Origin: Mycolicibacterium poriferae
GTDB taxonomy: Bacteria; Actinomycetota; Actinomycetes; Mycobacteriales; Mycobacteriaceae
Reading direction: 5' to 3'
Length of the DNA stretch: 64,000 nt
NCBI RefSeq assembly: GCF_010728325.1
Contig: NZ_AP022570.1
Coordinates: forward strand, 2,976,001-3,040,000
Each line of letters opens with the position of its first letter. Positions within the stretch are counted from its first letter, which is position 1. Shown in pieces: positions 46,319-64,000 of the stretch. The position numbers were made by a program, and so were the translations under genes. The notes under the pieces are model-generated. The model was given only the letters and a program-made list of their open reading frames with translations, did not search any database and had not been told where the DNA came from.

Positions 46319-46324
46319 TACGGT
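46319..46324 (+). promoter_or_regulatory. -10 element for a leaderless secreted-protein gene
   Basis: TACGGT fits TANNNT and lies 8 bp before GTG 46333, placing the transcript start at or near this codon. Confidence 0.35.
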
Positions 46325-46332
46325 CCGGCGAT

Positions 46333-48965: not shown

Positions 48966-49008
48966 GGGCCCCTTAGATGTATCCGGGTCGCGGATTCTTG
49001 ACAGGTGG

Positions 49009-49024
49009 TCGAACGTATGTTCGC
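49009..49024. promoter_or_regulatory. SOS (LexA) box upstream of the radical SAM gene
   Basis: TCGAACGTATGTTCGC differs from the mycobacterial LexA consensus TCGAAC-N4-GTTCGA at one fixed position only. It ends 7 bp before ATG 49032 and overlaps a TATGTT -10-like hexamer (49016-49021). A TTGACA lies upstream (48998-49003). The M. tuberculosis homologue Rv2578c is, from memory, a LexA-regulated gene. Confidence 0.85.
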
Positions 49025-49031
49025 ATGAAGT

Positions 49032-50048
49032 ATGCGGTGGGCGGGTCAGAGTATCGACGTCGACGACGGCGCACTCCCGGGGCTCCAGCGTATCGGCCTG
49101 ATACGTAGTGTGCGGACACCGCAGTTCGAGGGCATCACCTTCCACGAGGTGGTGTGCAAGTCCGCACTGAACAAGATTCCCAAGTCGTCGACCGGTCTGC
49201 CCTTCAACTACACCGTGAACGCCTACCGCGGTTGCTCGCACGCCTGCCGCTACTGCTTCGCGAGGCCCACCCACGAGTACCTCGAATTCGACTGCGGCAG
49301 CGACTTCGACAGCCAGGTGGTGGTCAAGACCAACGTGGCGGAGGTGTTGCGGCGCGAGCTACGCAGGCCGTCGTGGGCGCGGGAGACGGTCGCGCTCGGG
49401 ACGAACACCGACCCGTACCAGCGCGCCGAGGGCCGGTACGCGCTGATGCCGGGCATCATTGCCGCCCTGCGTGACAGTGGCACACCGTTTTCCGTCCTCA
49501 CCAAGGGCACGCTGCTGCGCCGGGATCTGCCGCTGCTCGTCGACGCCGCCGAGCGGGTGCGGGTGGGGGTGGCCGTTTCGCTGGCCGTGGGGGATCCGGC
49601 CCTGCACGCCGAGGTGGAGCCCGGCACCCCGACGCCGCAGGCACGGCTCGCGCTGATCGCGGCCATCCGGGAAGCGGGCCTGGACTGTCACGTCATGGTG
49701 GCGCCGGTGCTGCCGTATCTGACCGACTCCGAAGAACACCTCGACGGGCTGTTGGGGGCGGTCGCCGCCGCGGGTGCGACCAGCGTCACGGTGTTCGGTC
49801 TGCACCTGCGCGGGAGCACCCGGGGCTGGTTCATGGACTGGCTGGGCCGGACCCGCCCGGACCTGGTGGCGAATTACCGCGCCCTCTACCGCCGCGGAGC
49901 GTATCTGCCGGCGGAGTACCGAACCATGCTGCAGCGCAGGGCGGCACCCCTGGTGGCCCGCCACGGCCTGACCGGTGACGGTCGCGCGTTCCGCGAGGCG
50001 CCGGCGGAGCCGAGGCCTGCGCCGGCGTATCAGGAGGCGTTGTTCTGA
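49032..50048 (+). CDS. Radical SAM protein (Rv2578c type, SplB-like), intact copy
   Basis: A 338-residue radical SAM enzyme. The 4Fe-4S/SAM motif is CSHACRYC (CX3CX2C) in GCSHACRYCFARPTHEYLE-like sequence; TNTDPYQRAEGRY and VLTKGTLLRRDLPLL are typical of the SplB-related subgroup. Spore photoproduct lyase repairs DNA, but the substrate of this mycobacterial relative is not known. An SOS box just upstream supports a DNA-damage role. The segment from 49248 to at least 50009 is repeated at 63239-64000. It may be leaderless or nearly so. It is divergent from helD. Confidence 0.93.
   Translation: MRWAGQSIDVDDGALPGLQRIGLIRSVRTPQFEGITFHEVVCKSALNKIPKSSTGLPFNYTVNAYRGCSHACRYCFARPTHEYLEFDCGSDFDSQVVVKTNVAEVLRRELRRPSWARETVALGTNTDPYQRAEGRYALMPGIIAALRDSGTPFSVLTKGTLLRRDLPLLVDAAERVRVGVAVSLAVGDPALHAEVEPGTPTPQARLALIAAIREAGLDCHVMVAPVLPYLTDSEEHLDGLLGAVAAAGATSVTVFGLHLRGSTRGWFMDWLGRTRPDLVANYRALYRRGAYLPAEYRTMLQRRAAPLVARHGLTGDGRAFREAPAEPRPAPAYQEALF
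49248..50009 (+). repeat. Direct repeat, left copy (762 bp visible)
   Basis: This part of the radical SAM gene aligns without gaps to 63239-64000, offset 13,991 bp. By eye there are about 13 mismatches (about 98 % identity), two of which change an amino acid position (Ala to Ser, Asn to Gln). The repeat continues past the window on the right, so its full length is unknown. Confidence 0.95.
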
Positions 50049-50055
50049 ACCTGGG

Positions 50056-50265
50056 TCAGCTCTTGTTGCGCTTGACCTCGTTGAAGGGGACGCCGCGGTC
50101 CGCGGCGAACTCCCGGGGGAACCCCAGGATGCGTTCACCGATCACGTTGCGCGCCATCTCCGATGTGCCGCCGCCCAGCGATCCGGTCTGGCGTGACAGA
50201 TACCGCACCCCGACGTCGAGCATGACGGCGACGGCCGCCGCGATCGGTCCTTTCGGGGGCGCCAC
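50056..50265 (-). pseudogene. Acyl-CoA dehydrogenase, 3' remnant
   Basis: About 70 codons that end with the C-terminal block of an acyl-CoA dehydrogenase: SLGGGTSEMARNVIGERILGFPRE followed by FAADRGVPFNEVKR, in parts. The frame stays open to about 50334, but similarity to the family fades above about 50265; the FAD and substrate domains are missing. It starts right after the radical SAM stop, so in the ancestral order a fadE gene probably converged on the radical SAM gene and was cut when the island arrived. Confidence 0.75.
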
Positions 50266-50291
50266 GACGACCGCAATGCCGCGTTCGCTGA

Positions 50292-50733
50292 CCCGCCGTT
50301 CTCCAGCGGGCTTCGGCGAACGGAGGCGGCGTCGCTACTGACGATCGAGTTGCCTCGTCTGCAGGGGCAGCCGCAGCACTACATGACGCGCGATTCGCGG
50401 CAGCGGTCGCAAAACGATACAAGTCACGAACCGTCTACGTCTCGCATGCGGCCCGGCGGTACGAGACGCTGAGCCAAATCAAGGTGTTCACTGGACGATC
50501 GGGCCAACTGCGCGAGGTCATGCGTTGGCGCGATCGAGACGGTGCCGTTGGCCAGGCCGCGCTCAACGATCTGAGTCCCCATGAGCGCCGGTGGCTGTTC
50601 ATCGAGGGTCCGGCCGGCTCGGAACCCCAGTGTCTGTGGCTGAGTGCCGACGGCACTCCGTTTGCTCCGCATTCGTGGGAGGCGGTGTGTGGTGCGGGAT
50701 CCCAGCGCTGCCTGGATGTCCTGGGCATCGGGC
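50292..50733 (+). pseudogene. Probable tyrosine recombinase/integrase remnant
   Basis: The frame is open from 50292 without a good start (first GTG at 50484) and runs into antisense of the next SDR gene after about 50733. The segment ERRWLFIEGP, ECQ-like QCLWLSADGTPFAPHSWEAV and SQRCLDVLG resembles the middle of actinobacterial phage/transposon integrases, between the two halves of the catalytic domain. The C-terminal R-H-R-Y residues are absent. The assignment rests on pattern memory, not on a search. Confidence 0.45.
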
Positions 50734-51572
50734 TACTTGAGCATGCTGCCGGCGTCGACGGGCAGCGGTACGCCGGTGATGTAGCGGGCTTCGTCGGAGG
50801 CTAGGAACAGCACCGCGTTGCTGATGTCGACGGGTTCGACCCAGCCGATGGGCAGGGTATGCATGAACTGTGCGGCCACCGCGAGGTCGTCGGGGCCCGG
50901 GGTTTCCAGATCCGGGCGGAACAGTTTAATGGTGCCCTCGTTCATGAACATCGGGGTGTTGACATTGGTGGGACAGACCGCGTTGACGCGGATGAAGTGC
51001 TGGCCCAGTTCGACGGCAAAGGTGCGCATCAGACCGATGACGCCGTGCTTAGCGGCAATGTAGTGCCCGGTGTTGGGGTAGGGCTTGAGGCCACCGACCG
51101 AACTCGTGAGGATGATCGATCCGCCGTTGCCACCGGAAATCAGTTGCGGTACAGCGGCCTTCACGGTCTTCCAGACACCGGAGAGGTTGACGCCGATCAT
51201 GTCGTCCCAGTCCTCTTCGCTGGTCTTGTCCAGCGTTTCGCCGCCGTTGCCGATGCCGGCGTTGGCCACCACGATGTCCAGGCGCCCGAGTTGTTCGACG
51301 CCGTCGTCGAGTGCCACCTTCAGCGCGTCGTAGTCGCGGACGTCGACCTGGGTGGTGACGATACGGCGACCGAGGTTCTTGACCAGGTCGACGGTTTGGG
51401 CCAGGTCATCGGGGGTCGACGGGGCGATCTGGCTGTCGGCACTGATCGGTCCGCAGATGTCGACGGCAATGATGTCAGCGCCCTCCTCAGCCAGGCGCAC
51501 CGCGTGACTGCGACCCTGACCGCGTGCCGCGCCGGTGACGAATGCAACCTTGCCCTCTACCCGTGCGCCCAT
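50733..51572 (-). CDS. SDR family oxidoreductase, mycofactocin-coupled type
   Basis: A 279-residue SDR. It has the GRVEGKVAF-like start with TGAARGQGRSHAVRLAEEGADII, a longer insert after VDICG (ADSQIAPSTPDDLAQTVDLV) and catalytic HYIAAKHG (YxxxK). This insert marks the SDR subgroup that keeps its NAD bound and passes electrons to mycofactocin; carveol dehydrogenases belong here. It probably oxidises a secondary or primary alcohol. ATG 51572 has GGAGG 7 bp upstream. A site shared with the TetR promoter (51637-51653) lies 65 bp before it. Confidence 0.9.
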   Translation of the reverse strand: MGARVEGKVAFVTGAARGQGRSHAVRLAEEGADIIAVDICGPISADSQIAPSTPDDLAQTVDLVKNLGRRIVTTQVDVRDYDALKVALDDGVEQLGRLDIVVANAGIGNGGETLDKTSEEDWDDMIGVNLSGVWKTVKAAVPQLISGGNGGSIILTSSVGGLKPYPNTGHYIAAKHGVIGLMRTFAVELGQHFIRVNAVCPTNVNTPMFMNEGTIKLFRPDLETPGPDDLAVAAQFMHTLPIGWVEPVDISNAVLFLASDEARYITGVPLPVDAGSMLK

Positions 51573-51636
51573 CTAGCCACCTCCGTTTCTCAGGTCGGCC
51601 GGGCCCTTCCCGTGCCAACGTTCGACGTCCTAATAA

Positions 51637-51653
51637 TTGGTCGATCGATCAGG
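51637..51653. promoter_or_regulatory. TetR-type operator copy 1, before the SDR gene
   Basis: TTGGTCGATCGATCAGG matches the site at 52397-52413 (TTGATCAATCGATCAGT) at 14 of 17 positions and is nearly palindromic. It lies between the TetR stop and the SDR start. Confidence 0.65.
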
Positions 51654-51714
51654 AAGTATTGCGGTCCGTTGCTCGGCTGTCAATGAATGTCGGTTACGTC
51701 AGCCCAGGGGCGAA

Positions 51715-52323
51715 CTAGTCGACGGAATGCGCCGCCTCCGGCGACGGGGCGCCCAGTGTTCGGAGTTGGTGCTCGACGAATTCGCGTAACTCGTCGTGGC
51801 CGAGGGTGACGCCCACGGCTTCCTCGTTGCACAGGCTGCGGGCGGTCTGCGCGATGAGCATCGAGACCGCTACCGGCGGAGCGGCCTGCAGATCGATGCC
51901 CCTGGCGCGCAACGCGACGGTGACCGCTGCGGTCTCGATATCCCGCACCCGTTCGGCTATGGACTTGAGTTCGGCTCGGATCGCCTTGCGGTGATTGGCC
52001 AGCGCCATGAACTCCGTGTTCAGCGCTGTCATTCGAAGATCGCTATTCAACGTCCACAGCGCCGTCAACGGGTCGTCAGCGGCGAGTGCATCACGGATGC
52101 GATTAAGGGAGACCTCGGTGCCGGCACGGAGCACCTCGAGAAACAAGTCGTCCATCGACGGAAAGTAGTAGTAGACGAGGGCCTGTTTGACACCGGCTTC
52201 GGCGGCAACCCGACGCGAGGTCGCCGCGGCGTAGCCCTCGTCGCGCATGATCGTCGCGGTTGCCGCGATCAGGCGTAAACGCGCACCGTTGTCCGCGGAC
52301 CGGGCCTTTCGGGGTGCCGCCAT
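51715..52323 (-). CDS. TetR family transcriptional regulator
   Basis: A 202-residue regulator with a TetR helix-turn-helix (AAATSRRVAAEAGVKQALVYYYFPSMDDLF) and a separate sensor domain. It is divergent from the ferredoxin-P450-aldehyde dehydrogenase operon and upstream of the SDR gene in the same direction. Two matching palindromic sites, one before each unit, strongly suggest that it controls both and itself. ATG 52323 is used. The inducer is probably the P450 substrate or an oxidised product. Confidence 0.9.
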   Translation of the reverse strand: MAAPRKARSADNGARLRLIAATATIMRDEGYAAATSRRVAAEAGVKQALVYYYFPSMDDLFLEVLRAGTEVSLNRIRDALAADDPLTALWTLNSDLRMTALNTEFMALANHRKAIRAELKSIAERVRDIETAAVTVALRARGIDLQAAPPVAVSMLIAQTARSLCNEEAVGVTLGHDELREFVEHQLRTLGAPSPEAAHSVD

Positions 52324-52396
52324 TCAGTGCGCTCCTGCCGCGTGCTTGCTTGACCGTCTGTGCGGCGTCGTGATAAACATGCAGCATTCTAGCAAT

Positions 52397-52413
52397 TTGA
52401 TCAATCGATCAGT
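52397..52413. promoter_or_regulatory. TetR-type operator copy 2, in the TetR/ferredoxin divergent promoter
   Basis: TTGATCAATCGATCAGT contains the perfect dyad TGATC-AATC-GATCA (52398-52411). It lies 74 bp from the TetR start and 38 bp from the ferredoxin start. Confidence 0.7.
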
Positions 52414-52450
52414 AGGCGCAGAAATCAGACGACAGAAACGGCGGTTTCCG

Positions 52451-52657
52451 ATGTCGAGCACCAATGGGCGGGTGGTCGTCGATCCGCAGCTTTGCGAAGG
52501 GCACGCGCTGTGCCTTGAGTCGGCTCCCGAACTCTTCGACCTGTCCGATGACGATGTGGCGACTTGCATTGCGCAACCGACCGCGGAGCAATGGCCTCTC
52601 GTCCACGCGGCGATCGACGCCTGTCCGCGGGGTGCGATCAGCATCGTCGAAGACTGA
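52451..52657 (+). CDS. Ferredoxin (P450-associated)
   Basis: A 68-residue single-cluster ferredoxin. Ligands are visible in CEGHALC near residue 15 and in DACPRG near residue 58; the third-position cysteine of the first motif is replaced, which fits the 3Fe-4S or variant ferredoxins that serve mycobacterial P450s. The start is ATG 52451. It lies 51 bp before the P450 gene and heads the operon, the reverse of the order in the 7.9-10.3 kb cluster. No reductase is encoded nearby. Confidence 0.9.
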   Translation: MSSTNGRVVVDPQLCEGHALCLESAPELFDLSDDDVATCIAQPTAEQWPLVHAAIDACPRGAISIVED

Positions 52658-52708
52658 ACCGCGGCCCTGCCCCAGCTCCGTTTCCCTCACGAAAGGCCAC
52701 CTTCGTCC

Positions 52709-53989
52709 ATGACCGATCTGGCATCCGCTGACTTCTTCTCCGACCCGGCACTCGCGCAGGACCCCTACGCATACTTCGACGCCCTGCGCGAGCAGAACCC
52801 CGTCTTCCGTGAGCCGCACCAGGGGGTCGTCGCCGTCACCGGTTATCAGGAAGTGATGGCCGCGTTCAAGGACCACGCGACGTTCTCGGCCGTCAACGCG
52901 ATCGGCGGGCCGTTCCCGCCGCTGCCGTTCACTCCCGAGGGCGATGACATCAGCGAGCAAATCGAGGCCCACCGCCACCTGTTCCCGATCCATGAGCACA
53001 TGGTCGTCATGGATCCCCCGGCGCACGAGAAGGCCCGCTCGCTGTTGAGCAAGCTGCTCACCCCACGGCGCCTCAAGGAGAACGAGGACTTCATGTGGAA
53101 GCTGGTCGATCAGCAGATCGACCAGTTCATCGACAACGGTCGCTGTGAGTTCCTGTCGGAGTACGCCAAACCGTTTGCGACGTCGGCGATCATCGACCTG
53201 CTCGGAGTTCCGGAGGAGGACCGCCCTGAGTTCCTCGCGGCCCTGGGCGCCGAGCGTCCGGATGGTAACCGGGTCGGCGCTCTCGACGGTGAAGCCGTCG
53301 GGCTGGACCCCTTGCAATACCTCGACGATAGGTTCCTCGGCTATCTGGCCGCCCGGCGCGCCGATCCGCACGACGACGTGCTGTCGGGGATGGCGGCCGC
53401 GCTCTACCCGGATGGGTCGACGCCGGAACTGATCGAACTCGTCAAGCCCGCGACGTTCCTGTTCGCCGCCGGGCAGGAGACCGTCACCAAACTGCTGTCG
53501 GCCGCCGTACAGGTGCTCGGCGACAACCCCGAATATCAGGATCGGTTGCGCGAAAACCCGGATGGCGTACCGACGTTCATCGAAGAAGCGCTGCGGATGC
53601 ACTCACCGACGAAGGTCGATTTCCGCCTCGTCCGCAAGACCACCGAATTGGGCGGCGTGCATCTGCCTGCCGGCACCGTAGTGATGCTGTGCCTGGGTGC
53701 GGCCAATCGAGACCCGCGCAAGTTCGATGATCCCCATGAGTTCCGCCCTGACCGCAAGAACGTCCGTGAGCACATCGCGTTCGGCCGCGGCATCCACACC
53801 TGCGCCGGCGCCCCGCTGGCCCGCGTCGAGGGTCAGATCACCGTGCGACGGCTACTCGATCGAATGAGCGAGATCCGCATCGACGAGGACTTCCACGGAC
53901 CGGCCGGTGCGCGCAACTACGCCTATGAACCGACGTTCCTGCTGCGCGGTCTGACCCAGTTGCACATCGAATTCGACCGAGCGCTCTAG
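52709..53989 (+). CDS. Cytochrome P450
   Basis: A 426-residue soluble P450. The I-helix is [14 protein letters not shown], the K-helix EEALR and the haem loop [15 protein letters not shown] with its cysteine. Similarity to the P450 at 7963 runs through the whole length ([15 protein letters not shown] against [25 protein letters not shown] against [10 protein letters not shown]), so they belong to one family. It should hydroxylate a hydrophobic substrate with electrons from the upstream ferredoxin. The product could be passed to an SDR and an aldehyde dehydrogenase encoded around it. ATG 52709 is used. Confidence 0.93.
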
Positions 53990-54029
53990 ATCTCCTCGGG
54001 CCTTCGCAACACCGAAAGGTTGTCATAGC

Positions 54030-55481
54030 ATGGCGTTTCAGGCTGTCCTCGACGAACTCCGTCAGCGGCCGGGTGCCGGCGAGATGATCCCGATCACCGA
54101 CCCGGTCAGCGAGGAACAGGTCGGCGAGTTCACCGACGGGGGTGTCGCCGCGGTCGATGAAGCCGTCGCTCGAGCTCGGGTCAGCTTCGAATCCGGTGTC
54201 TGGCATCAGAAGCCGGGATCGGAAAGGGCGAAGGTGCTCGGTCGCGTCGCCGACTTGATCGACCAGCACGCCGACGAACTGGCCGACATCGACTCGCGTA
54301 ACACGGGCATGCCGCTGATGCAGGCCCGCGCGATCATGGGGACCAGCGCCGAGATCTTCCGCTACTACGCGGGGTGGTGCACCAAACTCAACGGGATCGC
54401 CCACGATGTGCAGCAGACCGGCGGTATCACCGGCGTCGACTCGAACATGCACGGCTATACCCTCAAACAGCCGTACGGCGTGGTCGGCCTGATCTTCCCG
54501 TGGAACGGACCGGTGTTCAACGCCTGCACGAAGCTGGCGCCTGCGCTGGCAGCCGGCTGCAGTAGCGTCGTGAAGCCCGCGGAGGAAACCCCGCTCTCGG
54601 CGCTGGTGATCGACAAACTGCTCAGGCAGGCGGGAGTGCCCGAAGGCGTGGTGAACCTCGTGACCGGTTACGGGCACACCGCCGGCGCCGCGATCAGTGA
54701 GCACCCCGGGATCGAGAAGGTGGCGTTCACCGGATCCACGGAGGTGGGCAAGCGGGTCGTCCAGGCGGCAAGCGGGAACCTCAAGCGGGTCACGCTCGAA
54801 CTCGGCGGTAAGTCGCCGGTGTTGATCTATGACGATGCCGATATTGACACCGCCGTCCTGATGGCGGCAATGGGAATCTTCATTCATTCTGGCCAGGGCT
54901 GTATCTGTGGATCGCGAATCTTCGCCCACCGCAATGTGTATGAGCGCGTTCTGGAAGGTGTTGCCAATCTGGCCAACACGGTCACACTTGGCGGTCCGAC
55001 CGAGGAGGCGCTGATCGGTCCGCTGATCAGCCAGAAGCAGCTGACCCGTGTGCTGGGATTCATCGACGAGGGTAAGCGCGACGGCGTCGAGGTGGTGGCC
55101 GGGGGGCACCGCCTCGATCGTAAGGGCTATTTCGTTCATCCGACCGTGCTGACCGATGTGGACCCCGCGATGCGCCTTTATCAGCAGGAGATCTTCGGAC
55201 CGGTCGTCCCAATCCTGCCGTTCGACGACGACGACCAAGTCGTGGCGCTGGCTAATGATTCCGACTACGGCCTGGCTGCCACGGTGTGGACCAAGGATGT
55301 CGGCCGGGCCCACCGGCTGGCCAAGCGCCTGGAATCCGGGACCGTGACCGTCAATTGCCAGATGGTCTTCGACCACTCGATGCCTTTCGGCGGCTGGAAA
55401 CAGTCCGGCTGGGGCTACGAGTGGGGCCGTGACGGCGTCGAATCTTTCATGAAGACAAAGAGCGTCTACGTGCAGCTCTGA
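54030..55481 (+). CDS. NAD(P)-dependent aldehyde dehydrogenase
   Basis: A 483-residue ALDH. The catalytic cysteine is in [12 protein letters not shown] and the glutamate in LELGGKSP; the cofactor loop [11 protein letters not shown] is intact. The start is ATG 54030 with GAAAGG upstream. It follows the P450 gene by 40 bp in the same operon and should convert an aldehyde made after P450 and SDR steps into a carboxylic acid. It converges on the esterase gene, 45 bp apart. It is only distantly similar to the aldehyde dehydrogenase at 58524. Confidence 0.92.
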
Positions 55482-55526
55482 GATCGTTCAAACACCGAGA
55501 CCAATTCACAAATGGGTTCGATGCCG

Positions 55527-56474
55527 TCAGCCCTTCGTGCTGATCCTCAGGCGGTCCCGCAGCATCGTGCACTGGCTGGTCAGGAATCGCCGGGAGATCG
55601 CAGACTCTGGGGCCACGGCGTCGAAGCCGTGAAACGCTCCCGGAACGACTTCCAGCCGGCACTCGACATCGGCTTCCCGCAGACGCTCTGCGTAACTGTA
55701 GGATTCGTCGCACAGCACGTCCAGGGTCCCCACACCGATCCAGGCGGGAGCGATACCTCGCAGGTCACCCCTGCGGGCGGGCACCGCGATGTGTGGATCG
55801 GCACCGACGAGATAGGCCGACCACCCGAGCGCGTTGCTCGCGTTGTTCCATAGCCGGCGCAGTCCGCGGTCCGCGTCTCGGCGCATTGCGGTCCGGTCGT
55901 CCAACATCGGGTAGAGCAGAATCTGTGCAGCGATGTCGACTTCGCCGCGGTCGCGGGCCATCAGCGCGAGCGCTGCGGCCAAGCCTCCGCCGGCGCTTGC
56001 GCCCGCCACAGCCACCCGCTTTGCATCTACCTCCGGGTGCGCGGCCAGCCAGGTCAAGGTCTCGTAGCAGTCGATGAGTGCGGCAGGATAGGGATGGGCG
56101 GGTGCCAAGCGGTAATCGACTGCAGCGACCAGTATTCCTAGCTCCTCGGCAAGACGTCGGCACAGACCGTCGTCCATCGCCGCACTACCCAATACATAAC
56201 CGCCGCCATGGATCCACAACAGCGCAGCACCACCGGGCGTGCTCGCCACGGACGGTTGGTGCACGCGGACGGCCAGACCTGAAGGCAACGTAATCGCGTC
56301 GGTATTCGGATGAGGTCTCACGATTCGCGGAAGCCGGGCGAAGGCCCAGACGGTCACCGGCGTGACCAGAGTGTTCGGCAGGAACCGACTAACGCGCCGT
56401 AGCTCTGGGTGGAACGCCGATGCCGAAACTCGTTGACGTAGTGGGCGAAACACGGCGGCCGGGGTGGTTGTCAC
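55527..56474 (-). CDS. HSL-family esterase (alpha/beta hydrolase)
   Basis: A 315-residue hydrolase of the hormone-sensitive lipase group. It has the oxyanion motif HGGGYVLGS, the nucleophile in AGASAGGGLAA (GxSxG) and the His region GAFHGFDAV; the Asp is likely in GTLDVLCDES. It should cleave short to medium acyl esters or lactone-like bonds in the cytoplasm. GTG 56474 overlaps the upstream stop (GTGA). It is the last gene of a leftward set with the XRE/cupin regulator, B3/4 protein and PaiB-like protein. Confidence 0.9.
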   Translation of the reverse strand: MTTTPAAVFRPLRQRVSASAFHPELRRVSRFLPNTLVTPVTVWAFARLPRIVRPHPNTDAITLPSGLAVRVHQPSVASTPGGAALLWIHGGGYVLGSAAMDDGLCRRLAEELGILVAAVDYRLAPAHPYPAALIDCYETLTWLAAHPEVDAKRVAVAGASAGGGLAAALALMARDRGEVDIAAQILLYPMLDDRTAMRRDADRGLRRLWNNASNALGWSAYLVGADPHIAVPARRGDLRGIAPAWIGVGTLDVLCDESYSYAERLREADVECRLEVVPGAFHGFDAVAPESAISRRFLTSQCTMLRDRLRISTKG

Positions 56475-57136
56475 GTGCGATTCCGGAACTCGTTCCAGTC
56501 TCCGATCGCACGCAGGCGCCGGCGCTGCTGCGATGCCGCACCTGCGTCGAGTCCGTGGCCACGCTCCTCGAGATTCCCGATCACCCGTTCTCGGTGGTCG
56601 ACCGGGTTGGAGTCGTCGTACTTGAACTTGGCATCGACGTGCAGCACCGATAACCGGACACCGCGGATACCGCGCAGCATCCGTCCGTACGGACCCTCGT
56701 CGACCGCGACGGTGGCGTGGCCCCCCTCGGGCTGAAAGTCGCCCAATTGTGCTGTCAGGATCTCCACCTTACCTTCGGGATCATCGACAATTGTTGGGCG
56801 GCAGACGAATTGCACGGAGGAGTAGTAGCTGGTGGGGACGCCGTCCTCGTCGGGGCCACCCGCCTTGGCTCGCCAGTAGGTCGGGATGTAGGCGTAGTCC
56901 CCAATGACTGCCAGCCGGACCTCGTCGGCCGCCTCCAGGTGCTGCCAGACCGGGTTGGGCCGGGCCAGATGGACCAGCAACTCAGCACCGGCGACGGTGA
57001 AATGGGTCGGCACCAACACCGGCGCCTGGGCCGGGCCGATGTTGTTGACAGCCAGCACCCCGAACCGGTCGGTGTGAGCCAGCCAGTCCTGCCATTCTCC
57101 TGCGTCCAGTGCGCTATCCCATGGATGAATCAACAC
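56471..57136 (-). CDS. FMN-binding PaiB-like protein
   Basis: A 221-residue protein of the PaiB / FMN-binding split-barrel type: VLIHPWDSA at the start, FGVLAVNN, VPTHFTV and LLVHLARPNPVWQHLE. In Bacillus PaiB was described as a negative regulator, but the fold suggests flavin-linked chemistry. The start is GTG 57136 (VLIHPWDS), with GGAG 8 bp upstream; a longer frame extension overlaps the neighbour gene. It lies 2 bp after the B3/4 gene. Its role with the esterase is unknown. Confidence 0.82.
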   Translation of the reverse strand: MLIHPWDSALDAGEWQDWLAHTDRFGVLAVNNIGPAQAPVLVPTHFTVAGAELLVHLARPNPVWQHLEAADEVRLAVIGDYAYIPTYWRAKAGGPDEDGVPTSYYSSVQFVCRPTIVDDPEGKVEILTAQLGDFQPEGGHATVAVDEGPYGRMLRGIRGVRLSVLHVDAKFKYDDSNPVDHRERVIGNLEERGHGLDAGAASQQRRRLRAIGDWNEFRNRT

Positions 57137-57138
57137 GT

Positions 57139-57879
57139 TCAGTCTCCGGATTTCGTCTCTGGATGGTTCTGCAGTAATCGTTGTGCGGTGTGGACGTCGG
57201 GTCCCAGACGGCGCAGATGAGAGGTCAGATCCTCGGCGGCGGCGCACAGTTGATCGTCGGTCAACGGGTCCAGGGCGTCCATGATGAACAACGCCGAGGT
57301 GGTCTCCTCGCTCAGCTGGGTGCGGCGCGCCTGGCGCCAGTTCCAACGCCTGCACGTCACGCCGGTGTCGTCGCACCACACGACCTCCCCGACGTCGGGA
57401 TGCTCGGTGACGGTGACGCCGTCGGCCGTGGTGTCGAAACTCTCCTCGCCAGTGGCGCGGATCAGCTGTGGCGCACCGCAATACCGCGAGAGATCCTCGC
57501 CACCCACGGGGAGCTGGTGCATCACCGACACCGCGTTGTAGAGATCGGTGATCCGGTTCACGCGAGGCAGGCCACCCTCAACGCGGCGAGTCAGGGCTTC
57601 CACACTGTTGCGGGTACGTTGCGGCTTGGCCCCGAACGCCCGGTATGCCTCGCGCCAGGCCGCGATATGCGGCAGCTGATCCACCGGGCGCTCGCGCAAT
57701 GCCTGGCGCGCAATCGCTTCGGCCTGCTGCAGAAGGGCTTCGCTGGCGTCGTCGCCGGGTCCGGGCTCGAGGCCGTCGACCGCCACCAGCAGAGCGCGGT
57801 AGTCGGGCCGCAACGCGAACACCCCATCATGGACGCGGGCGCTGTCTAGAAACTCTTCGAGTGCGAACTTCTCAACCAC
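57139..57879 (-). CDS. B3/4 domain protein (PheRS beta-like)
   Basis: A 246-residue stand-alone B3/B4 domain, as in phenylalanyl-tRNA synthetase beta subunits: REAYRAFGAKPQRTRNSVEALTRR and NRITDLYNAVSVMHQLPVGGEDLS are the key parts. The GTG at 57879 has GGAGG 6 bp upstream and is preferred to longer forms. Such free domains may edit mischarged tRNA or bind amino acids; the function here is unknown. The gene overlaps the XRE/cupin regulator gene by 8 bp, so the two are translated together. Confidence 0.82.
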   Translation of the reverse strand: MVEKFALEEFLDSARVHDGVFALRPDYRALLVAVDGLEPGPGDDASEALLQQAEAIARQALRERPVDQLPHIAAWREAYRAFGAKPQRTRNSVEALTRRVEGGLPRVNRITDLYNAVSVMHQLPVGGEDLSRYCGAPQLIRATGEESFDTTADGVTVTEHPDVGEVVWCDDTGVTCRRWNWRQARRTQLSEETTSALFIMDALDPLTDDQLCAAAEDLTSHLRRLGPDVHTAQRLLQNHPETKSGD

Positions 57880-58480
57880 TACGCGCCTCCGATGCGGAGC
57901 CCACTCCGGGTTCGAAGACCGCCAGCGAGAACCGGGCACCTGTCTGGTGGGGATTGGCGTAGGCGTGGCAAACGTCGCCGGGAAACGCCAGAGCATCCCC
58001 GGTTTCGAGGAGTATCACCTGGTCGTCGACGTCGACGGTGATCGCACCCTCGAGAACGTGTACCAACTCTTTGGTTCCGGCGACGTGAGGCTCGCTCGCG
58101 TGGCGATCCCCGGGCCCCAACGACCAGTCCCACAACTCCAGGACATCCGGGGGAGTCGTTCCTGCCATCAACACGCCGCGCCCGCCCTTGACGCCGGTCC
58201 AAAGTTGCGCGCCCGCGCCGCTGCGGGTGACCTTGACCGACTTGGGTTCCGGCGGTTCGACCAACGCGGGCAGCCCCACCCCGAGCGCGTCACTGAGCCG
58301 GAGCAACGTTCCGACACTGGGATTGACCGCGCCCTGCTCGACGTTGACCACCATGCGACGGCTCACCGACGCAACGTCGGCAAGCTGGTCCAGCGTCCAC
58401 CGACGCCGCCCACGCTCCTGCTTGACGCGTGCGCCGATCGCTGTCGCCAGCTTGGCGGCCTCCTGGTCCATATAGAGCAT
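57872..58480 (-). CDS. XRE-cupin transcriptional regulator
   Basis: A 202-residue regulator. The N-terminal XRE helix-turn-helix (WTLDQLADVASVSRRMVVNVEQGAVNPSVGTLLRLSDAL, about residues 28-66) is joined to a C-terminal cupin domain (KELVHVLEGAITVDVDDQVILLETGDALAFPG). This fusion type senses small metabolites and often controls amino acid or amine use. The start is ATG 58480, or ATG 58471. A perfect 19-bp palindrome lies 4 bp upstream of the start (58484-58502), so it probably represses its own operon (B3/4, PaiB, esterase). Confidence 0.9.
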   Translation of the reverse strand: MLYMDQEAAKLATAIGARVKQERGRRRWTLDQLADVASVSRRMVVNVEQGAVNPSVGTLLRLSDALGVGLPALVEPPEPKSVKVTRSGAGAQLWTGVKGGRGVLMAGTTPPDVLELWDWSLGPGDRHASEPHVAGTKELVHVLEGAITVDVDDQVILLETGDALAFPGDVCHAYANPHQTGARFSLAVFEPGVGSASEARSG

Positions 58481-58483
58481 GAT

Positions 58484-58502
58484 AATGCACTATGAGTGCA
58501 TT
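58484..58502. promoter_or_regulatory. 19-bp palindrome before the XRE-cupin gene
   Basis: AATGCACT and AGTGCATT are perfect arms around ATG. The site is between the XRE-cupin start and the stop of the aldehyde dehydrogenase gene at 58524, so it must cover the XRE-cupin promoter. Confidence 0.75.
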
Positions 58503-58523
58503 GATCTAGCTCGCCTTCGAGGC

Positions 58524-59984
58524 TCAGCCCAACCCGATACGGATGTTCTTGACCTGCTGGAATTCCTGCAGACCCTCCAGCCCGCCGGTGCGGCCGGCAC
58601 CGCTGTGCTTGTAGCCGCCGTACGGACCCTGCGGGGAGATTCGGCTGCCCTGGTTGATCCATACTGATCCGGACTCGAGCTGCCTGGCTACCGTGTGTGC
58701 CCGGTTCAGGTCTCGCGTGTGCACAAAGGCGTTGAGGCCGTAGCGAGTATCGTTGGCGATCCGCACGGCCTCGGCCTCGTCACTGAATCGGATCAAGGAG
58801 ACCACCGGACCGAAGGTCTCGGTCTGCGTGAGCGTCGAACCGTTGTCGACATTGCCGAGCACCGTCGGTTCGATGTAGTAGCCCCGTGCCAGTGCACCGA
58901 CGGTGATCCGTTGTCCGCCGGTGAGCAACTCACCGGCCCTATCTCCGACGGCCTGGTCAACCACCGAGAGAATTCGGGTGAGCGCCGCCTCGGAGATGAC
59001 CGGCCCGAAGGCGGTGGCCGGCTCCAGCGGATCGCCGATGCGCGCGGCGTCGATGACGCCGAGGAACCGCTCGACGAACGCGTCGTAGACGGTGTCCTGC
59101 ACAAGGATTCGGCTGGCGCACGCACAGCTTTGCCCCGATTGCATGAGCGGTCCCTGATGGGCCGAACGTACTGCAGCGGCGTCGAGGTCGGCATCGGCGA
59201 AGATGAGGTTGGCCGACTTTCCACCGAGTTCGGTCACTACCGGGGTCAGATTGTCGGCCGCAGCCTTGAGCACCGCGCGGGCAGTCTGGTCCCCGCCGGT
59301 GAAATGAATCTTGCCGATTCCGGGGTGGCGCACCAGCGCGTCCCCACCGTCTGCCGCGGCCGGCAGCACGTTCACCAACCCCGGTGGTAGCCCCGCTTCG
59401 ATGCAGAGCTCACCCAAACGCAATGCCGCCAACGGCGCCACCTCGGACGGCTTGAACACCACGGCGTTTCCCGCCGCGAGCGCCGGCGCAAGGCAGGATG
59501 CGGCCACCACCAGAGAACCGTTCCAGGGGGCGATGACGCCCACCACCCCGTACGGTTCGCGTTCGATGAAGTTCAGATCGGGGCTGCCGCTGACCGGCGT
59601 GCTCAACCCGTGCAATTTATCGACGTATCCGGCGAAGTGTCGGAGGAACTGCTCGACCATGATGGCGTTACCGGCATACGAAATCGGCACCCCATAGTCA
59701 TGAGTGTTGAGTTCGGCGAGCTCGCCGAGGTGTTCGTGCACCACGTCGGCGAGGTCGATGAGCGCGTCGCGTCGCTGGTCGACTGTCAACGCTGCCCACT
59801 GGCGTTGCGCCTCCTTGCCGGCCGAGACCGCAAGATCCATCTCTTTCGCCCCGGCCAACGCCACGGTGGCGTTGCACTCACCGGTGCCCGGGTAGATGTG
59901 TGAGTGCCGGTCGACCGATGTCGACGTGATCCGGTCCGACCCGACGAGCAACCCGATGACTCGATCGAACGGCATGGCGGTCAC
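58524..59984 (-). CDS. NAD(P)-dependent aldehyde dehydrogenase
   Basis: A 486-residue ALDH with cysteine in MQSGQSCACASRIL and glutamate in VTELGGKSA. GTG 59984 is chosen because AAGG lies 6 bp upstream and it overlaps the stop of the upstream gene (GTGA); ATG 59975 is the alternative. It is the last gene of a leftward operon with two mycofactocin-type SDRs and the tandem CMD protein, and should oxidise the aldehyde made by one of the SDRs. The end GGYKHSGAGRTGGLEGL is typical of this family. Confidence 0.9.
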   Translation of the reverse strand: MTAMPFDRVIGLLVGSDRITSTSVDRHSHIYPGTGECNATVALAGAKEMDLAVSAGKEAQRQWAALTVDQRRDALIDLADVVHEHLGELAELNTHDYGVPISYAGNAIMVEQFLRHFAGYVDKLHGLSTPVSGSPDLNFIEREPYGVVGVIAPWNGSLVVAASCLAPALAAGNAVVFKPSEVAPLAALRLGELCIEAGLPPGLVNVLPAAADGGDALVRHPGIGKIHFTGGDQTARAVLKAAADNLTPVVTELGGKSANLIFADADLDAAAVRSAHQGPLMQSGQSCACASRILVQDTVYDAFVERFLGVIDAARIGDPLEPATAFGPVISEAALTRILSVVDQAVGDRAGELLTGGQRITVGALARGYYIEPTVLGNVDNGSTLTQTETFGPVVSLIRFSDEAEAVRIANDTRYGLNAFVHTRDLNRAHTVARQLESGSVWINQGSRISPQGPYGGYKHSGAGRTGGLEGLQEFQQVKNIRIGLG

Positions 59985-60793
59985 GAATTGCCTTGTGACT
60001 CGTCGGCCCATTCCTGGGTCACCCGTTGCTTCTGCTCACCGATGACCTGATTCAGGTTCGACCCCTTGGGCCAGCCGTAGTGCGCAGCGAAATGCAAAGC
60101 CAGCTCGTCCATCTCATCGAAGGAGAGATCTCTGCTCTTCAGTGCGGCATAAACATGACTCAGGATCGGATATGGGGCGTCCTGGAAGGCGACACACGCG
60201 ACGGTGATCAACCGCCGCTCTTTCATCCCCAGCCCGGGCCGCAGCCACATCTCCCCGAACACGAAGTTCAGGATCCCGGCGCCCTGGAAGGGATTGTCCC
60301 GAGTCGGGGCGAACGGCAGGCAGTTGACGTCCTTGAACGACTGCTCGCCCACCGCGAGGCGTTCCTCGGGGTCGCTGGGGGTGCTCAGTGGTAGCAACGG
60401 TTCCGGCGGGGGTACCGGCAAGCCCCGGTCCTGGTGAATGCGTTCCCACTGCTCGTCGACGACCTGGTTGAACCGCGACGCTTTCGGCCACCCGCCGTAC
60501 ACTGCGAAATGTAGTACCGTCTCCTGCATTTCGACGACGCTGACGTCGCCGCTGTTGAGTGCGGCATATACGTGATCACGCAGGGGGCCCTCGGCATCGG
60601 CGGCAGCCGCACACGGCAGAGTGATGAACCGGCGTTCCCGGCGCGTCAGGCCGGGCCGCTGCCACACCTCGGCGAAGACGAAGTCCAGCAGATGCGTGGT
60701 CGCCGGCGTCGAGTCCTGAGGTGCGGGGATCGTCATGATGTCGGCGTACGCGCGTCGGCCGCGCTCGAGGCGGTCCGGGGCAACAGTCGTCAC
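59981..60793 (-). CDS. Tandem carboxymuconolactone decarboxylase-like protein
   Basis: A 270-residue protein made of two similar halves. Each half has a block like LDFVFAEVWQRPGLTRRERRFITL / LNFVFGEMWLRPGLGMKERRLITV and a later one like LHFAVYGGWPKASRFNQV / LHFAAHYGWPKGSNLNQV. These are CMD-family (AhpD-like) domains, but no CxxC pair is present, so a peroxidase role is unlikely; ring-cleavage or lactone chemistry is more plausible. GTG 60793 lies 23 bp after the SDR stop. The function in the island is unknown. Confidence 0.85.
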   Translation of the reverse strand: MTTVAPDRLERGRRAYADIMTIPAPQDSTPATTHLLDFVFAEVWQRPGLTRRERRFITLPCAAAADAEGPLRDHVYAALNSGDVSVVEMQETVLHFAVYGGWPKASRFNQVVDEQWERIHQDRGLPVPPPEPLLPLSTPSDPEERLAVGEQSFKDVNCLPFAPTRDNPFQGAGILNFVFGEMWLRPGLGMKERRLITVACVAFQDAPYPILSHVYAALKSRDLSFDEMDELALHFAAHYGWPKGSNLNQVIGEQKQRVTQEWADESQGNS

Positions 60794-60816
60794 GTCAAGA
60801 CTCTTTTCACTCGTGG

Positions 60817-61620
60817 TCAGCGGATGGTGACGCCGGCGTCGACCTTGAATTCCAGGCCGGTGACATAGCGGGCCTCGTCGGACACCAGGAACAACACCGC
60901 GTTGCTGATATCGACCGCCTCGGCCATCACGATCGGCAACGCATTCTGGAAGATCGGCCCGAGGTCGGCCCGCTGCTCATGCAGCAGGGTGTGCAGGGTC
61001 GCCGGTTGCATACCGGTCGGCACCCCAGTGGGATGCACGGTGTTGACCCGGATACTCTGTGCGGCGAGCTCATTGGCCAGCGCCTTGCTCATGCCGACCA
61101 CGCCGTGCTTGGACGCGGTGTACGGGGTGTGCAGCGGTGAGCCCTTGATACCGGCGGCCGAACTGACGTTGATCAGGGCGCCACCGCGCTCGACGAGATG
61201 GGGGATGGCGGCCCGACAGGTGTTCCACGTGCCGATCAGGTTCACGTCGACGACGGCGCGCCATTGCTCGGCGGAGGTGGTGTCCCAGGTGCCGCCGGTC
61301 AGCACGCCCGCATTGGCTACCGAGGCGTCCAGGCCACCCAGCTGGGTCACCGCGTCGTCGACTGCCGCCGTCAACGCTTGTTCGTCTCGGACGTCCACCA
61401 CCTGGGTCACCGCTCGCCGCCCGTGCTTTTCCACCAGTCGTGCGGTTTCTTCGAGGTCTTCGGTGGTGGCGAGCGGATATTCGATTGCGGGCAGCGATTC
61501 ACAGATGTCGACCAGGATGAGGTCGGCACCCTCCTCGGCCAGTCGCACGGCGTGGCTGCGACCCATGCCGCGGGCGGCCCCGGTGATCAGGACCCGCTTG
61601 CCCTCGACGCGCCCGCTCAT
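60817..61620 (-). CDS. SDR family oxidoreductase, mycofactocin-coupled type
   Basis: A 267-residue SDR with SGRVEGKRVLITGAARGMGRSHAVRLAEEGADLI, the extended segment after VDICES and catalytic PYTASKHG (YxxxK). The start is ATG 61620, overlapping the upstream SDR stop (ATGA); a four-codon extension is not supported. It is a sister of the SDRs at 61617 and 50733. The mycofactocin link is inferred from the subgroup pattern; no mft genes are in the window. Confidence 0.9.
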   Translation of the reverse strand: MSGRVEGKRVLITGAARGMGRSHAVRLAEEGADLILVDICESLPAIEYPLATTEDLEETARLVEKHGRRAVTQVVDVRDEQALTAAVDDAVTQLGGLDASVANAGVLTGGTWDTTSAEQWRAVVDVNLIGTWNTCRAAIPHLVERGGALINVSSAAGIKGSPLHTPYTASKHGVVGMSKALANELAAQSIRVNTVHPTGVPTGMQPATLHTLLHEQRADLGPIFQNALPIVMAEAVDISNAVLFLVSDEARYVTGLEFKVDAGVTIR

Positions 61621-62447
61621 AGCTTGTTGCAAAAGCCGGCGTCGACCGGGAAGGTGACCCCGGTGACGTACTTGGCGGCGTCGGACACCAGGTAGGCGAT
61701 GGCGTTGCTGATGTCCTCGGGTTCTAGCATTGTCACCGGCATGGGGTTCTGCAGGTGTGGTCCACCCTCGGGGTAGGCCTCCAGGAATGCCGTCATCTCG
61801 GGATTGACCGCCATCATGGTGTTCACCCCGGTCGGGTGCACGGTGTTCACCCGGATGCTGTACGGCGCAAGCGCATTGGCCAGCGTCCGCATCATTCCGA
61901 CGATGCCGGTCTTGGATGCCGAGTAGCCGAGTCCACCGCCGCGCATGCCACCGAACCCCTTGAGGCCGGCGGTGGAGCTGGTGAACACGATCGCGCCGCC
62001 GCGCTCGCCGGCGATTAGGTGCGGGATCGCGGCCTTAGCGGTGTGGAACGCGCCGTTCAAGTTGACGTCGACGACGGCGGACCACATCTCAAGGTCTTCT
62101 TCGATGCTGATCTCGCGGAATGCGGTCGGTGCGATACCGGCGTTGGCGAGGACGATGTCCAGGCGCCCGAACTGCTCCACACCGTCGTCTAGCGCTGCCT
62201 TCAGCGCATGAAAGTCGCGGACGTCGGCCACCGACGCCAGCATCTTCCCACCCACGGTCTCCACCAGGGCGACCGTCTCCTGGAGCTCTGCGCGCGAGGC
62301 CATCGGATAGCAATTGGCCGCGATGTCCGCGCAGATGTCGATGCCGATGATGTTCGCGCCCTCGCTGGCCAGACGGACCGCATGACTGCGGCCCTGACCA
62401 CGGGCCACCCCTGTAATGAAGGCGACCTTGTCGTCCAGAGAACCCAT
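61617..62447 (-). CDS. SDR family oxidoreductase, mycofactocin-coupled type
   Basis: A 276-residue SDR with DDKVAFITGVARGQGRSHAVRLASEGANII, the extended loop after IDICADIAANCYPM and catalytic GYSASKTG. It heads the leftward operon SDR-SDR-CMD-ALDH. ATG 62447 has GAGGAG just upstream. Two tandem TetR-type palindromes (62489-62528) lie between it and the divergent TetR gene, so the operon is very likely controlled from there. Two SDRs in one operon could act on two alcohols or on both stereoisomers. Confidence 0.9.
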   Translation of the reverse strand: MGSLDDKVAFITGVARGQGRSHAVRLASEGANIIGIDICADIAANCYPMASRAELQETVALVETVGGKMLASVADVRDFHALKAALDDGVEQFGRLDIVLANAGIAPTAFREISIEEDLEMWSAVVDVNLNGAFHTAKAAIPHLIAGERGGAIVFTSSTAGLKGFGGMRGGGLGYSASKTGIVGMMRTLANALAPYSIRVNTVHPTGVNTMMAVNPEMTAFLEAYPEGGPHLQNPMPVTMLEPEDISNAIAYLVSDAAKYVTGVTFPVDAGFCNKL

Positions 62448-62488
62448 TGCTCCTCGCTTCGTTGCGCCCGGCCGCCACAGAGCGACCT

Positions 62489-62505
62489 GAGTAACCGTGT
62501 TACAC
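62489..62505. promoter_or_regulatory. TetR-type operator A (one mismatch)
   Basis: GAGTAAC-CGT-GTTACAC: the same dyad as at 62512-62528 with one mismatch in the right arm. The centres of the two sites are 23 bp apart, about two helical turns. Confidence 0.7.
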
Positions 62506-62511
62506 CGGCTA

Positions 62512-62528
62512 GAGTAACCATGTTACTC
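62512..62528. promoter_or_regulatory. TetR-type operator B (perfect)
   Basis: GAGTAAC-CAT-GTTACTC is a perfect 7-3-7 palindrome, 18 bp before the TetR start and 64 bp before the SDR start. Confidence 0.75.
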
Positions 62529-62546
62529 ACGGGAAGGCAAGGGGCG

Positions 62547-63170
62547 ATGACCGAAACTTCCGCGGCACGGCACAACGGTGACCGCCTGCTCGATGTCGTT
62601 GTCGAGATCCTCGAATCCGAGGGCTACGACGCCGTCCAACTACGCGAAGTAGCCCGACGGGCACAGTCGTCGCTGGCCACCATCTACAAGCGCTACCCGA
62701 CGCGCGACGATCTGATCCTCGCTGCCCTTGAGTACTGGTCGCAGCGACACCGCTACGCCGGCATCACGGTCGGGGGAGGTTCGGAGGCGTCGCTGTATGA
62801 CGGTTTGATGCAGATTTTTCGCACGATCTTCGAACCCTGGGAGTCGCACCCGGAGATGCTCGCAGCCTACTTTCGGGTGCGGTCATCGCCCAACGGGCAG
62901 AGGCTGTTTCGCTTCGGGCTAGACCTCGTCGCCCCGGCTGGACTGGAGGTGCTGGCGGGCGTCGACGACGAATTCATCGCCAATCTCGACGCAATCTTCT
63001 CCAGTGTGATCTACGGACTACTCGGACGCTTCTCCGCCGGCGAGATCGCCGCCACCGACATCCTGCCCGTCCTGGAACGCACGGTGTACTGGCTGACCTT
63101 GGGCTACGAATCGGCACCGCCCCGGAGACCAAGTGCGTCGATCAAGCGCCGTTCGAACTCAGGGGGCTGA
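62547..63170 (+). CDS. TetR family transcriptional regulator
   Basis: A 207-residue regulator. The DNA-binding domain (YDAVQLREVARRAQSSLATIYKRYPTRDDLI) is of the type seen in KstR/FadR-like mycobacterial TetR proteins; the C-terminal domain is a larger ligand pocket. The start is ATG 62547; earlier in-frame codons would run through the operators. It is divergent from the SDR-SDR-CMD-ALDH operon with two tandem palindromes between, so it probably represses that operon and itself. It is the last complete gene of the island. Confidence 0.9.
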   Translation: MTETSAARHNGDRLLDVVVEILESEGYDAVQLREVARRAQSSLATIYKRYPTRDDLILAALEYWSQRHRYAGITVGGGSEASLYDGLMQIFRTIFEPWESHPEMLAAYFRVRSSPNGQRLFRFGLDLVAPAGLEVLAGVDDEFIANLDAIFSSVIYGLLGRFSAGEIAATDILPVLERTVYWLTLGYESAPPRRPSASIKRRSNSGG

Positions 63171-63238
63171 CCTCCTCGTCGCCGCCTTCTGACTACGGTT
63201 CGGTAAACAGGCGCAACACGGCTGGACTTGACAGGGAA

Positions 63239-64000
63239 CGCTACTGCTTCGCGAGGCCCACCCACGAGTACCTCGAGTTCGACTGCGGCAGCGACTTCGA
63301 CAGCCAGGTGGTGGTCAAGACCAACGTGGCGGAGGTGTTGCGGCGCGAGCTGCGCAGGCCGTCGTGGTCGCGGGAGACGGTCGCGCTCGGGACGAACACC
63401 GACCCGTACCAGCGCGCCGAGGGCCGGTACGCGCTGATGCCGGGCATCATTGCCGCCCTGCGTGACAGTGGCACACCGTTTTCCGTCCTCACCAAGGGCA
63501 CGCTGCTGCGCCGGGATCTGCCGCTGCTCGTCGACGCCGCCGAGCGGGTGCGGGTGGGCGTGGCCGTGTCGCTGGCCGTGGGGGATCCGGCCCTGCACGC
63601 CGAGGTGGAGCCCGGCACCCCGACGCCGCAGGCACGGCTCGCGCTGATCGCGGCGATCCGGGAAGCGGGCCTGGACTGTCACGTCATGGTGGCGCCGGTG
63701 CTGCCGTATCTGACCGACTCCGAAGAACACCTCGACGGACTGTTGGGGGCGGTCGCCGCCGCGGGTGCGACCAGCGTCACGGTGTTCGGTCTGCACCTGC
63801 GCGGGAGCACCCGTGGCTGGTTCATGGACTGGCTGGGCCGGACCCGCCCGGACCTGGTGGCGCAGTACCGCGCGCTGTACCGCCGCGGAGCGTATCTGCC
63901 GGCGGAGTACCGAACCATGCTGCAGCGTAGGGCGGCACCCCTGGTGGCCCGCCACGGCCTGACCGGTGACGGTCGCGCGTTCCGCGAGGCGCCGGCGGAG
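63239..64000 (+). pseudogene. Radical SAM gene, 5'-truncated second copy (runs off the window)
   Basis: From 63239 the sequence is nearly identical to codon 73 onward of the gene at 49032. The first 216 bp are missing, including the SOS box, the start and two of the three Fe-S cysteines, so it cannot make an active radical SAM enzyme unless translation starts elsewhere. No good start with a ribosome site precedes it in frame. The reading frame stays open to the window end, and most differences from the intact copy are silent. Confidence 0.9.

What the first reader, a model, noticed from the sequence alone, without database searches (positions are those of the whole stretch)
49248..64000. A 13-kb catabolic island enclosed by a gapless duplication of an SOS-controlled radical SAM gene
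Seen: 762 bp of the radical SAM gene recur 13,991 bp downstream without gaps (about 98 % identity by eye). Between them lie only accessory genes: P450, ferredoxin, three mycofactocin-type SDRs, two aldehyde dehydrogenases, an esterase, a tandem CMD protein and three regulators. Inference: foreign DNA entered by a single crossover or similar event at this gene, leaving one intact and one truncated copy. The direct repeats could still allow the island to be lost.
Basis: partly seen in the sequence, partly recalled or inferred. Interest (0 to 1): 0.85.

Follow-up and report, generated by a model that had tools for sequence, protein, structure and literature searches.

The report
Catabolic island inserted into radical-SAM gene
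A 13-kb block of degradation genes sits between two copies of part of a DNA-damage-controlled mycobacterial gene, a close relative without the block shows where it went in, and a second species carries part of the same block joined to the same base of the same gene.

Summary
The repeat is 975 bp (49248-50222 / 63239-64213), gapless, 15 mismatches, and holds rSAM from codon 73 to its end plus 167 nt of the convergent fadE. A sister species (G344, 94-95% identical) has the empty site: 13,016 bp inserted, 975 bp duplicated.

Two findings change the reading. (1) M. parafortuitum (G027) carries the right part of the island (91.6% DNA identity; neighbouring chromosomal genes 76-86%), joined to the SAME base of rSAM, but to an allele close to that of another species, G356; here the truncated copy is the host's own allele. 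The island's right end occurs in 2 of 396 genus genomes, this one included. (2) The left end matches part of a tyrosine recombinase, broken, though below Pfam and NCBIfam detection.

Best reading: a recombinase-borne catabolic element inserted site-specifically at rSAM codon 72/73; a later event with an uninterrupted copy of the locus gave back an intact rSAM and left the repeat. The insertion is shown; recombinase mechanism and restoration are inferred.

The parts
46761..48950 (-). HelD/HelR-type RNA polymerase recycling ATPase, divergent neighbour of rSAM, not duplicated (ORF runs to 49274; start estimated)
   Evidence: NCBIfam NF041465 1312 bits, NF041258 1303 bits, both over cut-off, profile begins at residue 110-114 of the ORF
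49009..49024 (+). LexA-type SOS box, 7 bp before rSAM; not in copy 2
   Evidence: 1 mismatch; at the same place in 24 of 25 relatives
49032..50048 (+). intact Rv2578c-family radical SAM gene (rSAM)
   Evidence: NF038135 512 bits, cut-off 430; CSHACRYC at 68-75
49248..50222 (+). repeat copy 1: rSAM codon 73 to end plus 167 nt of the 3' end of fadE
   Evidence: 975 bp, 98.46% to 63239-64213, no gaps
50056..50222 (-). fragment of the 3' end of fadE at the left junction
   Evidence: counterpart of 64047-64213, where the acyl-CoA dehydrogenase ORF L004:1047-2942 ends
50223..50723 (+). broken tyrosine-recombinase remnant in two frames, truncated at both ends, at the island's left end
   Evidence: tblastn with intact homologues of G157 and G203; no Pfam or NCBIfam hit of the pieces
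50733..51572 (-). mycofactocin-coupled SDR A
   Evidence: TIGR03971 394 bits, cut-off 300
51715..52323 (-). TetR regulator A
   Evidence: PF00440
52451..52657 (+). ferredoxin
   Evidence: PF13459 44.4 bits, cut-off 22.4
52709..53989 (+). cytochrome P450, CYP150A6 type
   Evidence: PF00067; best PDB match 6dcd CYP150A6, 613 bits
54030..55481 (+). aldehyde dehydrogenase 1
   Evidence: PF00171 545 bits
55527..56474 (-). alpha/beta-hydrolase esterase
   Evidence: PF07859 208 bits
56471..57250 (-). FMN_bind_2 protein (start uncertain)
   Evidence: PF04299 75.6 bits in ORF 56471-57481
57139..57996 (-). B3/4-domain protein (start uncertain)
   Evidence: PF03483 78.1 bits
57872..58480 (-). XRE-cupin regulator
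   Evidence: PF07883, PF13560
58524..60011 (-). aldehyde dehydrogenase 2
   Evidence: PF00171 484 bits
59981..60793 (-). tandem CMD protein
   Evidence: PF02627, two stretches
60817..61632 (-). mycofactocin-coupled SDR B
   Evidence: TIGR03971 348 bits
61617..62447 (-). mycofactocin-coupled SDR C
   Evidence: TIGR03971 357 bits
62508..63170 (+). TetR regulator B (start estimated)
   Evidence: PF17925, PF00440 in ORF 62208-63170
63171..63238 (+). 68-bp right end of the island, up to junction J with rSAM codon 73
   Evidence: 92.6% to M. parafortuitum; found in 2 of 396 genus genomes, this one included
63239..64000 (+). repeat copy 2 (to 64213 beyond the window): rSAM from codon 73, no start region, no SOS box

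Best explanation
A catabolic element carrying a tyrosine recombinase inserted site-specifically into the SOS-controlled Rv2578c-type radical SAM gene between codons 72 and 73, its right end (TetR B plus 68 bp) joining codon 73 (junction J). It did so at least twice: in the lineage of this genome, and in a species near G356, from which an island-rSAM' segment later reached M. parafortuitum. In this genome a second event with an uninterrupted copy of the same locus (sister chromosome or a conspecific) put a complete rSAM and the last 167 nt of fadE to the left of the element by one homologous and one illegitimate join. That restored rSAM, cut fadE and the recombinase gene at 50222/50223, and left the 975-bp repeat. 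Shown: insertion, empty site, host origin of both copies, one junction base with two alleles, a broken recombinase-like remnant. Inferred: that this recombinase made J, the order of events, and the restoration step.
For: Empty site in G344, overlap exactly 975 bp. Junction J at the same base in G027, with the following letters host-type in each: G027's truncated copy is 92% to G356's intact gene, 77% to G027's own, tree support 0.984 with G356; homology to G356 starts exactly at J and runs 895 bp to an insertion-sequence-like end. The 68-bp island end occurs in 2 of 396 genomes. Left end matches intact 512-516-aa recombinase ORFs: codons 213-257 at 73% and 266-408 at 41% (G203), 211-312 at 47% and 265-398 at 46% (G157); the G157 protein matches PF02899 over its cut-off. 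fadE and recombinase both stop at 50222/50223, so the left junction looks illegitimate. Copy 2's five derived changes are all GC to AT, one non-synonymous, as for an unconstrained copy.
Against: No intact recombinase in the island. The remnant's pieces hit no Pfam or NCBIfam model; the G157 homologue's PF00589 score is below cut-off (23.7 against 27.1). G027 shows no match to the G157 recombinase, and its contig ends before the left part, so the recombinase may be a passenger. No genome was found with rSAM interrupted at codon 72/73 and no second copy. The second occurrence of J rests on one 6.6-kb contig of a draft assembly. The restoration step has no direct evidence. The five-of-five GC to AT pattern is a small sample.
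Confidence: 0.5

Rival explanations
1. Campbell-type single crossover: a circle from a conspecific or near relative, already carrying a 975-bp rSAM-fadE piece, recombined with the chromosome and left one intact and one truncated copy.
For: Explains the topology and the clean direct repeat; 1.5% divergence fits a conspecific donor.
Against: Needs the piece to have been captured beforehand; a crossover inside the repeat leaves donor letters next to J, but G027 has X-type and this genome host-type letters from the first differing position; does not explain the same J with two alleles.
Confidence: 0.2
2. J arose once; the island then spread with rSAM' attached, and in one of the two lineages rSAM' was overwritten up to the very edge of homology by gene conversion from a resident rSAM.
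For: One shared junction and one shared 68-bp island end; conversion tracts can stop at the edge of homology (general knowledge).
Against: The alleles differ by about 25%, poor substrates for conversion, and all 975 bp here are near-identical to copy 1.
Confidence: 0.15
3. A double-strand break by the homing endonuclease of an rSAM intein, whose site lies 6 nt from J, with capture of the island by end joining.
For: In G072 the gene is split between Y74 and C75 by an intein-like stretch (L088); NCBIfam has a model for intein-bearing Rv2578c proteins.
Against: Pfam intein hits of the G072 protein are below cut-off; no homing-endonuclease family among the Pfam hits of the island proteins scanned; does not explain a fixed island end; nearness noticed afterwards; inteins in this genus not surveyed (one search did not complete).
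Confidence: 0.05

Closest known systems
Streptomyces phage Samy attB in the Rv2578c-family radical SAM gene (PMC12924846: abstract, passages, sections 16-17 read)
   Same: Mobile DNA inserted site-specifically inside the same gene family.
   Different: Serine integrase; its 12-bp repeat fits best at about codons 27-31 of two actinomycete homologues (1 and 2 mismatches, my inference), not at 72/73; the paper says the gene is inactivated in Samy's native host, whereas here an intact copy exists.
Tn554-type and SE elements with several tyrosine recombinases (PMC10214605: passages read)
   Same: Tandem large recombinase ORFs in the homologue's locus (L178), target specificity and no target duplication in those elements as the paper describes.
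   Different: Here only a remnant; element ends, 6-bp footprint and movement not shown; the L178 ORFs were not compared with TnpA/B/C or IntA/B.
Homology-facilitated illegitimate recombination (PMC3240628: abstract and outline read)
   Same: One homologous plus one illegitimate join, as proposed for the left side.
   Different: Inferred here from end-state only; the paper reports a low frequency in E. coli.
CYP150A6/mycofactocin-SDR/CMD clusters of other mycobacteria (L087 M. xanthum, L093, L094, L096, L231)
   Same: Same gene types in similar order, 54-93% protein identity.
   Different: No rSAM match within the 16-20 kb read around each; no match to XRE, B3/4 or FMN_bind genes there.

Membership tests
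Site-specifically integrated genomic island | island-free relative with intact target locus | tested here: met
   G344
Site-specifically integrated genomic island | same insertion base in independent hosts | tested here: met
   this genome and G027, different rSAM alleles; one contig only for G027
Site-specifically integrated genomic island | intact integrase in the element | tested here: not met
   only a broken remnant
Site-specifically integrated genomic island | short att repeats at both ends | tested here: not met
   975-bp repeat of host sequence instead
Site-specifically integrated genomic island | excision and circular form | not testable with these tools
   needs reads or PCR
Tn554/SE-type element | several tandem tyrosine recombinases and 6-bp footprint | tested here: inconclusive
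   homologue's locus has three tandem ORFs, two with integrase hits, one of them below cut-off; none intact here; footprint not identified
Intein homing | homing endonuclease gene in the element | tested here: not met
   no such Pfam family among hits of the island proteins scanned
Rv2578c-family radical SAM | NF038135 above cut-off and CX3CX2C | tested here: met
   copy 1 only; copy 2 lacks C68 and C72
Mycofactocin-coupled SDR | TIGR03971 above cut-off in a genome with the mycofactocin maturase | tested here: met
   three of three SDRs; TIGR03962 658.8 bits, cut-off 265, at C1:1649663

The most novel reading that the evidence does not exclude
The stretch that encodes the iron-sulphur motif of the SOS-controlled Rv2578c gene is a natural landing site for unrelated mobile elements: a tyrosine-recombinase catabolic element at codon 72/73 in two mycobacterial lineages and an intein at codon 74/75 in another family. 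Cells that carry the element regain a working rSAM by recombination with an uninterrupted copy, which fixes the cargo between long host repeats from which it can be lost again.
Probability: 0.3. Interest if true: 0.65.

Novelty: new member of a known kind. Interest (0 to 1): 0.45.

Why it matters
A catabolic cluster that enters a damage-controlled gene at a fixed base, and whose target gene is nonetheless intact, would show one way in which degradation genes spread between environmental mycobacteria, and would define a new attachment site in a gene already known as a phage attachment gene in Streptomyces (PMC12924846). It also makes a test easy: conspecific strains and relatives should show single-copy, interrupted and repeat-flanked states of one locus.

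Tried and rejected
Assembly artefact: thought unlikely; the copies differ at 15 places, the genome is in two contigs, and the right junction recurs in another assembly. No reads were seen.

Same two-copy arrangement in most relatives: rejected; the island's right end is in 2 of 396 genus genomes, this one included. Two further searches across the junction (100 and 98 genomes) matched it only in G027, but they went over genomes already sampled and are no independent support. The match lists were cut, so weak second rSAM copies may have been missed. Odd rSAM hits were read: G131, residues 2-148 at 65% near a contig end; G101, a gene split over two contigs; neither joined to the island. G136 has rSAM interrupted near codon 253, another place.

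Samy attB as the same site: rejected by position (inference). Plasmid source: for 56400-63238 (the part searched) 0 of 239 matching PLSDB records cover 80% in one place. rSAM on plasmids and phages gave nothing on the junction. A hit of the 170-residue left-end piece in G027:C12 covers the part antisense to SDR A and did not recur with the intact G157 recombinase; dropped. CYP150A6: no paper. Mycofactocin/CMD/CYP150: one paper with two of three terms, listing only. The cluster's substrate was not determined.
Full report
Observation. The repeat is real: 49248-50222 against 63239-64213, 975 bp, no gaps, 15 mismatches, sharp edges, and the genome search gives these two places only. It holds rSAM from codon 73 to the end and 167 nt of the 3' end of the convergent fadE. 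Copy 1 belongs to an intact Rv2578c-family gene with the motif C68-x3-C72-x2-C75; copy 2 lacks the first two cysteines and leads into an acyl-CoA dehydrogenase ORF. A LexA-type box with one mismatch lies 7 bp before the intact gene, and one with at most one mismatch at the same place in 24 of 25 relatives, against 9 of 2000 random 160-bp stretches. Copy 2 has none, since the repeat begins downstream of the box. Expression was not tested.

Empty site. In G344 the stretches matching window 33179-50222 (93.9%) and 63239-79000 (95.2%) run on without a break and overlap by exactly 975 bp. So 13,016 bp (50223-63238) were inserted and 975 bp duplicated. Of 25 relatives whose locus was read, 14 have aligned rSAM and fadE ends within 119 bp of each other, 9 are 0.6-7.1 kb apart (in L185 rSAM itself is interrupted), and 2 show no fadE in the stretch: DNA has entered this gap in several lineages. 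In M. parafortuitum the 6.9 kb there read by eye as MarR, MFS, TetR and hydantoinase-type proteins (no family search).

Island content. P450 of CYP150A6 type, ferredoxin, three mycofactocin-coupled SDRs, two aldehyde dehydrogenases, esterase, tandem CMD protein, two TetR and an XRE-cupin regulator, FMN_bind_2 and B3/4-domain proteins. The genome has the mycofactocin maturase over its cut-off. Parts of the cluster, 54-93% identical in protein, lie elsewhere in M. xanthum, G302, G371, G428 and G356, without an rSAM match in the 16-20 kb read. The XRE, B3/4 and FMN_bind genes have no match there, and M. parafortuitum has XRE and the end of B3/4 before its contig ends. XRE and B3/4 genes are neighbours on two Clavibacter plasmids too.

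Second host. M. parafortuitum CCUG 20999 (G027; L135 is L047 reversed) has a 6,640-bp contig running from XRE to TetR B, 91.6% identical to this island over 5,374 bp, whereas six chromosomal genes near rSAM are 76.5-85.9% identical between the two. After TetR B the same 68-bp end (92.6%) joins rSAM at the same base. That truncated rSAM is 92% identical to the intact gene of G356 and 77% to M. parafortuitum's own. A 49-sequence tree puts it with G356 (0.984), and the two copies of the present genome together (0.963), next to G344. The letters after the junction are host-type in each case from the first differing position. The homology to G356 starts exactly at the junction and runs 895 bp, past the stop, to a stretch repeated in part at six other places of that genome.

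Left end. From 50223 the island matches a tyrosine recombinase in two frames: codons 213-257 (73%) and 266-408 (41%) of the G203 homologue, 211-312 (47%) and 265-398 (46%) of the G157 one. The pieces hit no Pfam or NCBIfam model. The intact G157 protein matches PF02899 over its cut-off and PF00589 below it. With one piece, 53 of 396 genus genomes have a match, this one included. M. parafortuitum has none to the G157 protein. At 50222/50223 neither fadE nor the recombinase continues, so this junction looks illegitimate.

Age. Against G344, copy 1 has 9 derived changes, copy 2 has 5, one position is unresolved. All five of copy 2 are GC to AT and one is non-synonymous; copy 1 has seven silent codon changes and one double change, Q to N at codon 281. 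This fits a recent duplication with copy 2 unconstrained; the numbers are small.

Mechanism. Two host alleles at one junction base, with one fixed island end, are best explained by site-specific insertion at codon 72/73. The broken recombinase at the other end is a suspect but may be a passenger. Insertion alone would interrupt rSAM; the intact gene plus a stub of fadE on the left needs a second event, one homologous and one illegitimate join with an uninterrupted locus. That step is inferred. A plain single crossover explains the topology here but not the second species.

Known context. The Rv2578c-family gene is the attachment gene of Streptomyces phage Samy (PMC12924846: abstract, passages, sections 16-17; one passage of PMC11302927). 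Its 12-bp repeat best fits codons about 27-31 in two actinomycete homologues, with 1 and 2 mismatches: another site in the same gene. In G072 an intein-like stretch splits the gene between Y74 and C75, 6 nt from J; its Pfam intein hits are below cut-off. No paper on a tyrosine-recombinase element at this gene showed in the searches (10 of 16, 2 of 2 and 8 of 15 papers listed).

Limits. One genome per species, no conspecific strains, one small contig for the second host, cut match lists, no reads.

Noticed in passing
rSAM-fadE gap in relatives (L046, L048, L052, L181, L182, L184, L185, L187, L188): In 9 of 25 relatives read, 0.6-7.1 kb lie between rSAM and fadE: the gap looks like a recurrent place for accessory DNA.
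   Followed up: partly
L088:1570-3495 (G072): Intein-like insertion of about 290 aa in the Rv2578c-family gene between Y74 and C75, 6 nt from the island junction.
   Followed up: partly
L178:9793-15193 (G157): Three overlapping or adjoining large ORFs (512, 580, 734 aa) on an 864-kb contig; the first matches an integrase model over cut-off, the third one below it, the second none.
   Followed up: partly
56471-58480: FMN_bind_2, B3/4 and XRE-cupin genes sit inside the catabolic cluster and have no match in the other clusters read; XRE and B3/4 are neighbours on Clavibacter plasmids.
   Followed up: partly
G000:C2 (216,341 bp), 198411-199889: The genome's second contig carries an open recombinase ORF 41% identical to that of G157; a 20-kb stretch of the contig is in part 98-99% identical to plasmids of M. 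vanbaalenii and M. gilvum.
   Followed up: no
L185 (G136) 6000-9584: rSAM is interrupted near codon 253 by about 2.6 kb.
   Followed up: no
46761-48950: HelD/HelR-type RNA polymerase recycling factor shares the promoter region with the SOS-boxed rSAM gene.
   Followed up: no
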